Origin: an uncultured beta proteobacterium
Lineage (GTDB): Bacteria; Pseudomonadota; Gammaproteobacteria; Burkholderiales; SG8-41
Assembly (NCBI GenBank): GCA_902825845.1
Contig: CADECM010000011.1
Span: 17,054-66,529, forward strand
Reading direction: 5' to 3'
Length of the DNA: 49,476 bases
The translations under genes and the position numbers were made by a program. The notes below the pieces were generated by a model, which saw only the letters and a list, made by a program, of their open reading frames with translations, had not been told where the DNA came from and did no database searches. Positions 42,736 to 46,178 of the stretch are shown one piece after another (the first letter of the stretch is position 1; each line of letters starts with the position of its first letter).

Positions 42736-43494
42736 CTATTTTGCGGCCGCAGCGGTGGCCGGCGCGCTCTTCAACGACGCCAGTTTCTTGAAATCGATGG
42801 CGCTGAGCGCCTGCTTGAGGTCTTTCATTTCGATGCCGGTGCCGCGCAGCTCAACCACAAAGCGCCCGCCGACAATGACATCGACTTCGCCCCGTTTGTC
42901 CTTGGCGTTCCACTTTTCATGCATCTTGCGGCCATCGACAGTCGACGTTTTCTCGTAACCCCGGTCCGTCTCGCGATCGATCTCCACCATCGCCCAGCCC
43001 GCCGCCGCCATTCCCGCAATGCCGCTCATCGACCCGGTATCGATGATCTTCAAACGAACCCGCGTGTTGGCATCGCCCGCGTACCGCGCCTGAACCTGCG
43101 ACACCTTCACGCCCATGGCCGCGGTTTTTTCGCCGGAAGCCTCGCCGCGCTTCAATCCCGCCATCGTCTCCGGCAGCAAGGCCTTCAAATCGCGGAAATC
43201 CACCGGCTCCACCGCGCCCTTGCCGTCGCCGCCCGCCATCGCGCCCATCATCGCCGACGCCGCCGCCATCGCATCCGCGCCCTGCTTGATCGCTTCCTGC
43301 GGCGTTTGCGGCGGACTGGACTTGCCTGCCCGGGCAACCGCCTCCATTTTTTTCGCCGCTTCCGCCATTCTGGCGGCAGCCGCCTGAGCCGCCTCGGCGG
43401 CCTCCTGCTCCTTGCTCTTGCCGCAGCCGGTCAATTGTGTGAGGCAAAGAACCGCGATCGACACCCCTGACAGTATCGTCTTCCCGCTCACCAT
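42736..43494 (-). CDS. Predicted lipoprotein of unknown function
   Basis: 252 aa from the ATG giving MVSGKTILSG, with GGGGAG upstream. The signal sequence ends in LTQLTGC, a lipobox, so the protein is probably lipid-anchored. Residues about 25-60 are an Ala/Glu/Lys-rich predicted coiled coil (KEQEAAEAAQAAAARMAEAAKKME). The C-terminal half is a soluble domain (FRDLKALLPETMAGLKRGEASGEK, then VEIDRETDRGYEKTSTVDG and VIVGGRFVVELRG) that I do not recognise as characterised. The gene is divergent from the retron promoter, 113 nt away. Confidence 0.7.
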   Translation of the reverse strand: MVSGKTILSGVSIAVLCLTQLTGCGKSKEQEAAEAAQAAAARMAEAAKKMEAVARAGKSSPPQTPQEAIKQGADAMAAASAMMGAMAGGDGKGAVEPVDFRDLKALLPETMAGLKRGEASGEKTAAMGVKVSQVQARYAGDANTRVRLKIIDTGSMSGIAGMAAAGWAMVEIDRETDRGYEKTSTVDGRKMHEKWNAKDKRGEVDVIVGGRFVVELRGTGIEMKDLKQALSAIDFKKLASLKSAPATAAAAK

Positions 43495-43607
43495 GGCTCG
43501 CTCCCCGTTTGATGTTTTCGCCAGCAATGGTGTTATGCGACGCAGGTGTTGTCAATCGCCATCGCCACACGGCCCACCTCGCGGCGCCGCGATGCCGCAA
43601 CACCCAT

Positions 43608-43636
43608 TTGACACGCGCGGTTGCTCTCCGTATCTT
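43608..43636 (+). promoter_or_regulatory. Retron promoter, near-consensus sigma-70
   Basis: TTGACA (43608-43613), exactly 17 nt, TATCTT (43631-43636). The predicted start (about 43643-43644) falls on the first base of the retron a1 repeat, the expected 5' end of an msr-msd RNA. This agreement was not imposed: the promoter and the repeat were found separately. Confidence 0.8.
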
Positions 43637-43643
43637 GCACACG

Positions 43644-43811
43644 GCAGCATGCTTCAAGCCGATGCGCGGTTGAACCATCCCCGTGATGCCAGCCGCAAGT
43701 CTCCGCGGGGTTACCCCGCGGGAAAGCACTATCGCACCACTCAGCGCATGAGCCGCGCTGCACCCTGTGCAGACACGCTCATGCAAGACCAGCAGCGTTG
43801 AAGCGTGCTGC
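43644..43811 (+). ncRNA. Retron msr-msd non-coding RNA
   Basis: About 168 nt. The ends are a1 GCAGCATGCTTCAA (43644-43657) and a2 TTGAAGCGTGCTGC (43798-43811), reverse complements over 14 bp with one G.U. The base after a1 is G43658 in an A-G-C context, as expected for the branch guanosine. The msr part holds a 6-bp stem (43666-43671/43691-43696) and a GC-rich hairpin CCGCGGGG-TTA-CCCCGCGG (43703-43721). The msd part holds a hairpin with GCATGAGC/GCTCATGC (43746-43753/43777-43784) enclosing CTGCAC-CCT-GTGCAG (43758-43772), separated by a 4x4 internal loop. The predicted cDNA would be about 60-70 nt. Six T follow a2. Confidence 0.82.
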
Positions 43812-43832
43812 TTTTTTCGTCGTCCCGCATCC

Positions 43833-45170
43833 GTGACCGCACGCCAACGCATCGCACTGGGCATTGCCGACGCCCTGCTCGCCGGAGAGTGCGAGGCCAC
43901 ATCCGCGCGCCTGCGCTGCGAGCGCGCACTCGCCAGCCGCGCGCGCTGGATCGGACGTTTGGCGCGGCAAATAGTGGCGCAGTTTGCGGATAACTGGCGC
44001 GACACCGCGCGCCATGAGATGGCAAAAGCGATAGTGCTGTCGCAAGCGTTCGACGATGCATGGCGCGGCAGGCGGCCGCCGCGGCTGCGCCGTTTTCCAC
44101 TGACGCCGCCGCGCATGAGCGCGTTGCCGCGCGCACTGATCGATTGCGTGGTGCCCGATTTGCCGACACCGCGCGACATTGCGCAATGGCTCAACCTGAG
44201 TGACGGCGAACTCGCCTGGCTCACCGGGCCGTTGCAACACCCGCGCACGAATGACGCGCGCCATTCACACTACAACCACCGCTGGCTGCCCAAACGCAGC
44301 GGCGGCCTGCGCCTGCTGGAAATCCCCAAGGCGCAATTGTGCGCCGTTCAACACCGCGTGCTGCGCGGCCTGCTCGAATACGTGCCTCCGCATCAGGCCG
44401 CGCACGGCTTCCGCCAACGGCATTCCTGCATCACCAACGCCCGCCCGCACGTCGGGCAGGCTGTCGTTGTACGCATGGATCTCGAAGATTTCTTCGGCCA
44501 CGTCGGCGGCGGAAAAGTGTATGAACTGTTTGCCGCGCTCGGCTACCCGGCCGCGGCGGCGCGCACGCTCACGCGGCTCACCACCTGTGCCACGCCGCGG
44601 CAGGCACCAAGCCATGCGGCAGACGGTGCCCGCGCCGCGGCATGGCACGCCCGCAAGCGCCTTGCCTCGCCCCACCTGCCACAGGGTGCGCCCACCTCGC
44701 CCGCGCTGGCCAACCTGTGCGCCTTCAACTTCGATGTGCGGGTGCAGGCGCTGGCCGACTCATTCGGCGCGCAATACACGCGTTACGCCGATGACCTGAC
44801 CTTCTCCGGCAACGACATGCTGGCGCGCCGCGTGCAAACCTTCGCCGCCCATGTGGCCGCGATTGCGCTCGACGAGGGATTTCGCGTCAATCACCGCAAG
44901 ACGCGTGTCATGCGCGCCGCCACCCGCCAGCAAGTGACGGGGATCGTGGTCAATCGCGTGCCCAACCTGCCGCGCGAACACTTCGACCAGCTCAAAGCCA
45001 CGCTGCACAATTGCCTAAGGCAGGGTCCCGCGTCGCAATGCCCCGCGGGGATGCAGCAATTCAGAAATCATCTTGCCGGCCATATCGCACAATATTCCGC
45101 GATCCATTCGGCGCGCGGCGCGCGCCTGCTGGACATGTTTATGCGCATCGCCTGGGATGACGCCGTGTAG
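43833..45170 (+). CDS. Retron reverse transcriptase
   Basis: 445 aa from GTG 43833, the first usable start after a2; an earlier GTG at 43767 lies inside the msd hairpin. Residues 1 to about 110 form a basic, helical N-terminal extension. The RT core follows: HYNHRWLPKRSGGLRLLEIPK, retron NAxxH motif as NARPH (202-206), RMDLEDFF with the first catalytic Asp (D216), QGAPTSPALANL (from 284), YADD (318-321) and the retron VTG motif in VTGIVVN (368-370). This is the myxobacterial-type (Mx162-like) retron RT organisation as I recall it. It would make msDNA from the upstream RNA. No effector gene is adjacent. Confidence 0.93.
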   Translation: MTARQRIALGIADALLAGECEATSARLRCERALASRARWIGRLARQIVAQFADNWRDTARHEMAKAIVLSQAFDDAWRGRRPPRLRRFPLTPPRMSALPRALIDCVVPDLPTPRDIAQWLNLSDGELAWLTGPLQHPRTNDARHSHYNHRWLPKRSGGLRLLEIPKAQLCAVQHRVLRGLLEYVPPHQAAHGFRQRHSCITNARPHVGQAVVVRMDLEDFFGHVGGGKVYELFAALGYPAAAARTLTRLTTCATPRQAPSHAADGARAAAWHARKRLASPHLPQGAPTSPALANLCAFNFDVRVQALADSFGAQYTRYADDLTFSGNDMLARRVQTFAAHVAAIALDEGFRVNHRKTRVMRAATRQQVTGIVVNRVPNLPREHFDQLKATLHNCLRQGPASQCPAGMQQFRNHLAGHIAQYSAIHSARGARLLDMFMRIAWDDAV

Positions 45171-45209: not shown

Positions 45210-46178
45210 CTACGGAATGCGCACCACCACTTTGCCCAGCAACTGATCCGTCTCCACATACGCCTTCGCCGCCGGCAGTTCGTCAAAACCGAATACGCGG
45301 TCGATGACCGGCACAATGGCGCCAGACGCCAGCGCCGGATACACGTCGCGCATGAAGCCCTGCATCGAGGCGGCGCGATGCGCGGGGGTAAGCGGTGTGT
45401 TGGAAATGCCGCTGATCTGCAGCCGCTTGCCGTGCACCGCCTCGAGGTCGAAATCGGCGTGCATCTGGCCATCGACGTAGCCCACAATGATCACGCGGCC
45501 AAAATCAGCGGCTGCGCGCACGCACCCCGGGAAAGCGCTGCCGCCGACGAGGTTGACGGCGACGTTGACACCCTTGCCGCCGGTGGCCTGCAGTGCCGCG
45601 TCGGCAAACGCGCCGCCGCGCCCCTCGATGCCCACATCAAGGCCCAGGGTCTTTAACACGGCGAGCTTGCGCGCGGCGCCCGACACGCCGATCACGCGCG
45701 CGCCCAGCGCTTTCGCGATTTGCAACGCGGCGACACCCACGCCCGAGGACGCGCCCAGCAGCAGCACCCACTCGCCGGCCTGCGCGCGGCCGAACTCGAC
45801 GACGGCTTCCCACGCGGTAATGTACGCCGCCGGCAGCGCCGCTGCCTGTTCCCACGACAGGTTGTCGGGCATGATCGCGGCCAGCGCCGGATTCACCGCC
45901 GCATACTCGGCAAAGCAGGCGTGGGCACGAAACAGCACGCGATCGCCCGCGTTGAAGCGGCTGTTGCCCGCGTCGATGACTTCACCCGAGCCGTCGATCC
46001 CCGCAGGCCGCCCAGCCGCGGCACTGTGGCGGTGAATGCGCGCCAGCATGTCGCCGCGATTGATCGACGTCGCGCGCATGCGCACCAGCATTTCACCCGC
46101 CGCGGGTTGCGGCAACGGCTGGTCGCGCAATTCGAGTTCGGTGCGATCGCCGGTCTTCTTGATCCAGTAAGCTTGCAT
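45210..46178 (-). CDS. Zinc-independent MDR-family NAD(P)H:quinone/enone oxidoreductase
   Basis: 322 aa, ATG after AAAAGGAC. Medium-chain dehydrogenase/reductase of the quinone oxidoreductase type: GroES-like N-domain (MLVRMRATSINRGDMLARI, GIDGSGEVIDAG) and a Rossmann domain with GASSGVGVAALQIAKALGARVIGV. The zinc-binding Cys/His set is absent, which separates it from alcohol dehydrogenases. It reduces quinones or enones using NADPH in the cytosol. The 3' end is convergent with the retron RT gene; no functional link is implied. Confidence 0.9.
   Translation of the reverse strand: MQAYWIKKTGDRTELELRDQPLPQPAAGEMLVRMRATSINRGDMLARIHRHSAAAGRPAGIDGSGEVIDAGNSRFNAGDRVLFRAHACFAEYAAVNPALAAIMPDNLSWEQAAALPAAYITAWEAVVEFGRAQAGEWVLLLGASSGVGVAALQIAKALGARVIGVSGAARKLAVLKTLGLDVGIEGRGGAFADAALQATGGKGVNVAVNLVGGSAFPGCVRAAADFGRVIIVGYVDGQMHADFDLEAVHGKRLQISGISNTPLTPAHRAASMQGFMRDVYPALASGAIVPVIDRVFGFDELPAAKAYVETDQLLGKVVVRIP

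What the first reader, a model, noticed from the sequence alone, without database searches (positions are those of the whole stretch)
43608..45170. Complete retron: promoter, msr-msd RNA and reverse transcriptase
All parts of a retron are present and agree with each other. TTGACA-17-TATCTT predicts a transcript starting at the first base of a1. a1 and a2 are 14-bp reverse complements 140 nt apart. The base after a1 is a G in AGC, the expected branch site. The enclosed RNA has a strong msr hairpin and a two-tier msd hairpin. 21 nt after a2 the RT begins, and it has YADD, NAxxH and VTG. Known: NAxxH and VTG are retron RT hallmarks, and most retrons are anti-phage systems with an effector. Inference: this is a functional retron in a betaproteobacterium, with an msDNA of about 60-70 nt, and its RNA is not one I recognise.
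Basis: partly seen in the sequence, partly recalled or inferred. Interest (0 to 1): 0.93.

Follow-up and report, generated by a model that had tools for sequence, protein, structure and literature searches.

The report
Solitary retron with conserved msr-msd RNA
The window holds a retron, a bacterial gene for a reverse transcriptase next to the structured RNA it likely copies into a small DNA; relatives of this pair occur in at least seven phyla, no recognisable toxin gene sits beside it here, and its role, perhaps phage defence, is untested.

Summary
A sigma-70-like promoter, an msr-msd RNA (43644-43811) and a 445-residue retron reverse transcriptase (RT, 43833-45170) lie in order. The RNA belongs to a conserved family: a covariance model finds it upstream of the RT in 77 of 80 relatives, including 44 of the 47 not used to build it. 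The a1/a2 stem covaries and the branch G (CAA|G) is invariant in 36 aligned rows. Rfam 15 has no match. The RT fits PADLOC's untyped retron profiles (RT_other, RT_outgroup) better than any typed one; the group II intron model scores far lower.

New here: no effector gene was recognised beside it. Its flanking genes lie 36-51 bases apart in a sister genome that lacks it, and no gene recurs beside the RT across relatives, apart from close kin sharing surroundings and one planctomycete group. The RT has an N-terminal five-helix domain with no significant PDB match. The likely mechanism is the standard one: self-primed copying into a branched msDNA of about 65-75 nt. That step, and the role, are inferred. 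Most novel open reading: a self-contained two-part retron whose N-terminal domain is the output.

The parts
43608..43636 (+). Predicted sigma-70 promoter TTGACA-17-TATCTT
   Evidence: 10 of 12 consensus matches, 0.1 expected; TTGAC at -48..-22 of the RNA in 38 of 76 rows, shuffled mean 1.4, highest of 200 shuffles 7
43644..43657 (+). a1 arm of the msr-msd RNA
   Evidence: pairs with 43798-43811; 12 of 15 pairs of this stem change on both sides among 36 rows
43658..43658 (+). Predicted branch (priming) guanosine, in CAA|GC
   Evidence: CAAG in 36 of 36 aligned RNAs, AAGC in 31 of 36; position as described for retrons in PMC6868368 (passages)
43666..43696 (+). Variable msr hairpin
   Evidence: minimum-free-energy fold; length and sequence vary among relatives
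43702..43722 (+). Conserved msr hairpin, CCGCGGGG-UUA-CCCCGCGG type
   Evidence: 98.6% of cells paired, 4 of 8 pairs changed on both sides
43723..43797 (+). msd template region (predicted extent), up to 75 nt
   Evidence: stretch between the conserved msr hairpin and a2; inferred by analogy with known retrons
43746..43784 (+). Two-tier msd hairpin GCATGAGC..CTGCAC/GTGCAG..GCTCATGC
   Evidence: inverted repeat, 18-nt arms, 78% complementary; covarying helices 3-5
43798..43811 (+). a2 arm of the msr-msd RNA
   Evidence: GTTG (the G before a2 and its first three bases) in 36 of 36 rows
43833..45170 (+). Retron reverse transcriptase, 445 aa, GTG start
   Evidence: PADLOC RT_other 453 bits; AlphaFold pLDDT 93.1; best PDB match Ec86 retron RT 7v9x, E 2.3e-20
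43833..44072 (+). N-terminal five-helix domain of the RT (residues 1-80)
   Evidence: separate model of residues 1-112 pLDDT 94.0; no PDB match at E<=0.001

Best explanation
This is a retron made of a structured msr-msd RNA and a reverse transcriptase, with no recognisable effector gene at the locus, and the enzyme likely copies the RNA into a branched msDNA of about 65-75 nucleotides. Inferred steps: transcription from about 43644; a1 pairs with a2; the RT recognises the conserved msr hairpin and primes on the 2'-OH of G43658; it copies from G43797 back through the msd hairpin and stops near the msr hairpin; RNase H trims the template; the RT keeps the msDNA as a ribonucleoprotein. The most likely role is a phage-triggered guard complex, in which the N-terminal helical domain, or a partner encoded elsewhere, gives the output. 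Shown: the parts, their order, RNA conservation with covariation, the retron affiliation of the RT, and the lack of a recognisable effector in cis. Not shown: msDNA, defence, or the role of the N-terminal domain.
For: RNA: covariation score 0.481 against 0.160 shuffled and at most 0.117 when slid; 91.1% of cells paired. 26 of 34 RNAalifold pairs change on both sides in at least one row. Model R1 hits 77 of 80 loci on the RT strand upstream of the RT, among them 44 of the 47 not used to build it. In 399 genomes of the order the RNA is found in 7, all 7 with an RT match at E<=3.1e-68. RT: untyped retron profiles lead; fold closest to retron RTs; dN 0.13, dS 1.09 over 163 codons against a sister-genome fragment. 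No effector: the four neighbours scanned match no defence profile beyond one hit at E 0.025; empty site in G169; the next gene is co-directional in 36 of 76 loci and within 150 nt in 23 of 76. No match in 50,697 phage records at E<=1e-40.
Against: No msDNA or transcript data exist here. Typed retron systems are defined with an effector (general knowledge), so a solitary unit may not defend at all. The 36-row alignment was picked from 59 rows for a visible a1/a2, which favours helix 1. The empty site rests on one sister genome. Gene calls around relatives used a longest-ORF heuristic, and only four neighbours of the window itself were scanned against defence profiles. The N-terminal domain shows no catalytic motif that I recognised and no fold that would mark it as an output. 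Exact NAxxH and VTG are not universal in the family (41 and 54 of 91).
Confidence: 0.85

Rival explanations
1. A tripartite anti-phage retron of the usual kind whose effector is encoded elsewhere in the genome and is held inactive by the RT-msDNA complex.
For: Retrons are described as guard systems with a sequestered toxic effector (PMC12548924, abstract in the listing, passages). The RT lineage sits in a defence database and is patchy: of 14 genomes of the genus 3 have any RT match and 2 a match of this family, one of them a fragment.
Against: The unit between the flanking genes is RNA plus RT only; no neighbour recurs across the main group. An effector left behind on transfer would give no benefit in a new host (reasoning).
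Confidence: 0.3
2. A solitary retron with a non-defence role, for example msDNA as a decoy or regulator of a DNA-binding or repair protein.
For: The msd hairpin is conserved in sequence as well as structure; no match in 50,697 phage records at E<=1e-40; among 56 relatives in viral contigs the best is 34% identical over residues 109-445. Some retrons seem to lack a proximal effector (PMC8867640 passage).
Against: Patchy presence within the genus does not fit a core function. No target is known.
Confidence: 0.25
3. A selfish or decaying retroelement without function.
For: A sister genome (G404) carries only a C-terminal RT fragment, 83% identical over 163 residues, before the same dehydrogenase gene.
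Against: dN/dS about 0.12 against that fragment, covarying RNA in at least seven phyla, conserved promoter.
Confidence: 0.08
4. Not a retron: a group II intron or other RT with a chance hairpin upstream.
For: RVT_1 alone is shared by such RTs; the tree is poorly resolved at depth.
Against: Retron profiles 453 bits against 56 for the group II model; the RNA is conserved and covaries.
Confidence: 0.02

Closest known systems
PADLOC RT_other / RT_outgroup retron RTs (untyped)
   Same: The RT scores 453 and 426 bits over nearly its whole length, N-terminal part included
   Different: These profiles name no effector and no type; here the RNA family and the solitary arrangement are described
Retrons Mxa1 (Mx162), Mxa2 (Mx65), Sau1 (Sa163), Nex2 (Ne144) of myxobacteria
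   Same: N-terminally extended RT; priming G in CAGC (Mxa1, Sau1) or GAGC (Mxa2) (PMC6868368 passages). That no effector is known for them is my recall
   Different: In one myxobacterial genome (G408, that of L046) three further RTs, L149, L151 and L153, score best as RT_XIII, while L156 of that genome is of the query's family; R1 gives no match at E<=1 at L149-L153. That these correspond to the Mx65 and Mx162 kinds is my recall, from length and start of the protein only
PADLOC retron type XIII
   Same: Third-best profile for the query, 307 bits
   Different: Score far below RT_other; no accessory profile hit any of the four neighbours scanned; that its accessory genes are ARM and WHSWIM proteins is recall
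Single-gene retrons I-C (RT-Toprim), XI (RT-protease), XII (RT-TIR)
   Same: One protein gene plus RNA
   Different: There the effector is fused to the RT, C-terminally by recall; here the extra domain is N-terminal, helical and of unknown function

Membership tests
Retron | Retron-type RT with YADD and regions X (NAxxH) and Y (VTG) | tested here: met
   YADD 318, NARPH 202, VTG 368; PADLOC retron RT profiles lead
Retron | msr-msd RNA upstream, bounded by a1/a2 inverted repeats, covarying among homologues | tested here: met
Retron | Conserved branch guanosine in AGC at the inner end of a1 | tested here: met
   the G is in 36 of 36 rows (CAAG); full AAGC in 31 of 36, the window among them
Retron | Production of 2'-5' branched msDNA | not testable with these tools
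   no sequencing or gel data available
Typed (tripartite) retron defence system | Cognate effector next to or fused with the RT | tested here: not met
   no effector profile in four neighbours; empty site shows RNA plus RT only; a partner in trans, or the N-terminal domain acting as one, is not excluded
Retron type XIII | RT_XIII is the best profile and type XIII accessory genes are adjacent | tested here: not met
   RT_XIII 307 bits against RT_other 453; no accessory hit in four neighbours
Group II intron RT | Match to the group II RT/maturase model above its cut-off | tested here: not met
   56 bits, curated cut-off 300
Known Rfam RNA family | Match at gathering score | tested here: not met
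   0 matches in the window; only match at E<=10 in 43580-43860 is isrK, 11.7 bits, E 3.4
PADLOC msr-msd covariance models | Match to one of the PADLOC ncRNA models | not tested
   the models exist (PMC9252829 passages) but are not held here

The most novel reading that the evidence does not exclude
A pan-phylum class of self-contained two-part retrons: one RNA, one protein. The N-terminal five-helix domain of the RT is the built-in output of the msDNA complex, and one planctomycete branch has exchanged that domain for a short amphipathic leader plus a membrane protein encoded next door.
Probability: 0.3. Interest if true: 0.78.

Novelty: new variant of a known kind. Interest (0 to 1): 0.52.

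Why it matters
Retrons are now understood as toxin guards (PMC12548924 abstract), yet the first ones found, in myxobacteria, have to my knowledge no known effector, and in 2019 the role of retrons was still called poorly understood (PMC6868368 passage). This locus is a clean solitary case: an empty site marks its borders, one RNA model tracks its RT across phyla, and the unit is about 1.6 kb. That makes the question 'what does a retron do without an effector gene' directly testable in a laboratory strain. The RNA family is also a possible new scaffold for making ssDNA in cells.

Tried and rejected
Rejected: group II intron or chance hairpin; type XIII; a phage-borne element (no match in 50,697 phage records at E<=1e-40; viral contigs: 56 relatives, best 34% identical over 109-445); a mobile-plasmid element (3 of 72,556 records at E<=1e-40, all Burkholderia replicons of 0.9-1.3 Mb predicted non-mobilizable).

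Errors of mine kept in view: treated L084 and L086 as + strand, which is wrong; they are not in A4 (R1 later hit them on the right strand). One search set wrong anchors in several rows and was replaced, where L016 and L077 were then corrected by hand for A4. One search read some loci on the wrong strand and was replaced.

Full report
What is there. The window lies in a 6.0-Mb genome of 207 contigs. Between a lipoprotein-like gene (42736-43527, minus strand) and a zinc-type dehydrogenase gene (45210-46178, minus strand) sit a promoter-like site, a structured RNA and an RT gene, all on the plus strand. One a1/a2 pair is G-U.

Is it more than chance? The RT has thousands of relatives: 7667 proteins at E<=0.001 of the 7997 candidates scored, the best 74% identical. 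A plain inverted-repeat scan was suggestive only: in many loci the best score lay within five shuffles. From 59 rows (58 loci and the window) I took 36 in which a1/a2 could be anchored by eye and aligned them. This choice favours the a1/a2 helix. RNAalifold, given no structure, returned the a1/a2 stem, the msr hairpin and the msd hairpin: 34 pairs, 26 with a change on both sides in at least one row. With the window's own structure (37 pairs), 91.1% of cells pair (73.8% shuffled), 222 cells change on both sides (64.3 shuffled) and the covariation score is 0.481 (0.160 shuffled; 0.081-0.117 slid). CAAG and GTTG are in 36 of 36 rows; the full AAGC in 31.

The less biased test is the covariance model R1. 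Over the 80 loci it hits upstream of the RT, on its strand, in 77, with E at most 2.7e-5; of the 47 loci not used for the model, 44. The three misses: L068 (only 149 nt upstream held), L081 (none) and L062 (a hit on the opposite strand). Across 399 genomes of the order R1 finds 7 (strict filters), each with an RT at E<=3.1e-68; one further genome with an RT at E 9.0e-64 (G198) was missed there but found on its locus at E 2.7e-4 (L090). No copy of the RNA without such an RT was seen in those genomes; the own genome has one copy. By record titles the hits span Pseudomonadota, Myxococcota, Acidobacteriota, Planctomycetota, Verrucomicrobiota, Actinomycetota and Gemmatimonadota, many of them metagenome-assembled genomes. 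The promoter is conserved too: TTGAC in 38 of 76 rows against 1.4 by shuffling (76 of the 78 rows, two with too little upstream sequence left out).

What RT is it? PADLOC: RT_other 453 bits, RT_outgroup 426, RT_XIII 307, then typed families. NCBIfam: three retron models at 174-176 bits, all below their cut-offs, group II 56. The AlphaFold model (pLDDT 93.1, pTM 0.89) is closest to solved retron RTs, Ec86 first. In a 63-row tree the query groups with Burkholderiales members, weakly (82/30); L001, the genome's own second RT, which I take for a group II intron RT (PADLOC names it only 'RT'), stands alone at the midpoint root on a long branch. No other group II or DGR RT was in that tree. In one myxobacterial genome (G408) a member of this family, L156 (RT_other 552 bits), lies beside three RTs that score best as RT_XIII (L149, L151, L153); a second such genome (G409) has counterparts of two of them in the tree (L150 with L153, L152 with L151) that were not scanned. 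R1 does not hit L149-L153 at E<=1. So the family is separate from those, which by length and recall are the Mx65 and Mx162 kinds. Mx65 is listed with a 1284-nt gene in PMC8934634 (passage).

No effector at the locus. The two genes on either side match no defence profile, save one hit at E 0.025. In sister genome G169 the lipoprotein and dehydrogenase genes are adjacent, 36-51 nt apart depending on the ATG, with no RT and no R1 match in that genome; the window has 1.68-1.72 kb there. Of the 14 genomes of the genus, G169 is the only other one with both genes on one contig. G404 has a C-terminal RT fragment (163 residues, 83%) before the same dehydrogenase, with another gene in between. Across 76 of 81 loci (five with little downstream sequence left out) the next gene points the same way in 36 and lies within 150 nt in 23 (longest-ORF heuristic). 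Clustering of neighbours over all 81 gave mostly antisense ORFs over the RT; a group of 8 loci at mixed strands and distances of 262-4982 nt; locally shared surroundings among close kin (for instance four Burkholderia loci with a common downstream ORF, L006, L008, L014, L015); smaller groups further off; and one gene right behind the RT in 8 planctomycete loci.

The N-terminal domain. Residues 1-80 form five helices with W39 in 91 of 91 A3 rows and a median net charge of +4, range -1 to 9; in the more diverse A5 set the median is +3, range -14 to 12. No PDB match is significant. Short proteins bearing it mostly look like cut RTs. The planctomycete branch lacks it, by eye, and starts MGLFxFLxxLFG-like instead; members of that branch have the downstream gene, 8 loci, 45-58% identical to the first, without a family in Pfam (5 of 8 scanned), PADLOC (3 of 8) or NCBIfam (2 of 8, only chance-level hits). 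A swap of output modules is a tempting reading, unproven.

Mechanism. By analogy with studied retrons (PMC6868368 passages; RNase H role, PMC8989520 abstract start and passages), the RT would prime at G43658 and copy from G43797 to near the msr hairpin, at most 75 nt. All of that is inferred. dN 0.13 and dS 1.09 over the shared 163 codons say that this part of the protein has been kept by selection.

Novelty. The RT lineage is already profiled in PADLOC without a type. Retrons without a clear proximal effector are mentioned in print (PMC8867640 passage). The RNA is absent from Rfam 15; PADLOC's own RNA models could not be tested. I therefore call it a new variant of a known kind.

Noticed in passing
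L070:7019-7741, L039:7100-7930, L045:5330-6196, L050:4398-5138, L063:7174-7914, L078:6196-6870, L080:5065-5637, L081:7019-7735: Planctomycete relatives lack the helical N-terminal domain of the RT and carry, 14-288 nt downstream on the same strand, a conserved, apparently membrane protein without a known family in the scans made: a candidate new retron partner.
   Followed up: partly
L062:5743-5914: In one Solirubrobacterales assembly the RNA model hits on the strand opposite to the RT (49.9 bits), as if the RNA were inverted.
   Followed up: no
window 43791-43812: a2 overlaps a terminator-like hairpin with a T tail (8 pairs, 6-nt loop; 0.3 expected). It would compete with a1/a2 pairing and could split the RNA from the RT message. 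Its conservation was not tested.
   Followed up: no
L134:397-888 (G404): A sister genome holds a C-terminal RT fragment, 83% identical, before the same dehydrogenase, with a gene that looks like a Bug-type receptor in between: the site seems to have been occupied there too.
   Followed up: yes
G000:C152 (L001:398-1789, minus strand): The genome has a second reverse transcriptase, 464 aa, likely of a group II intron.
   Followed up: partly
L089, L090, L095: RTs of about 480-500 aa in one family of the order carry a weaker relative of the RNA (27-46 bits), a possible sister RNA family.
   Followed up: no
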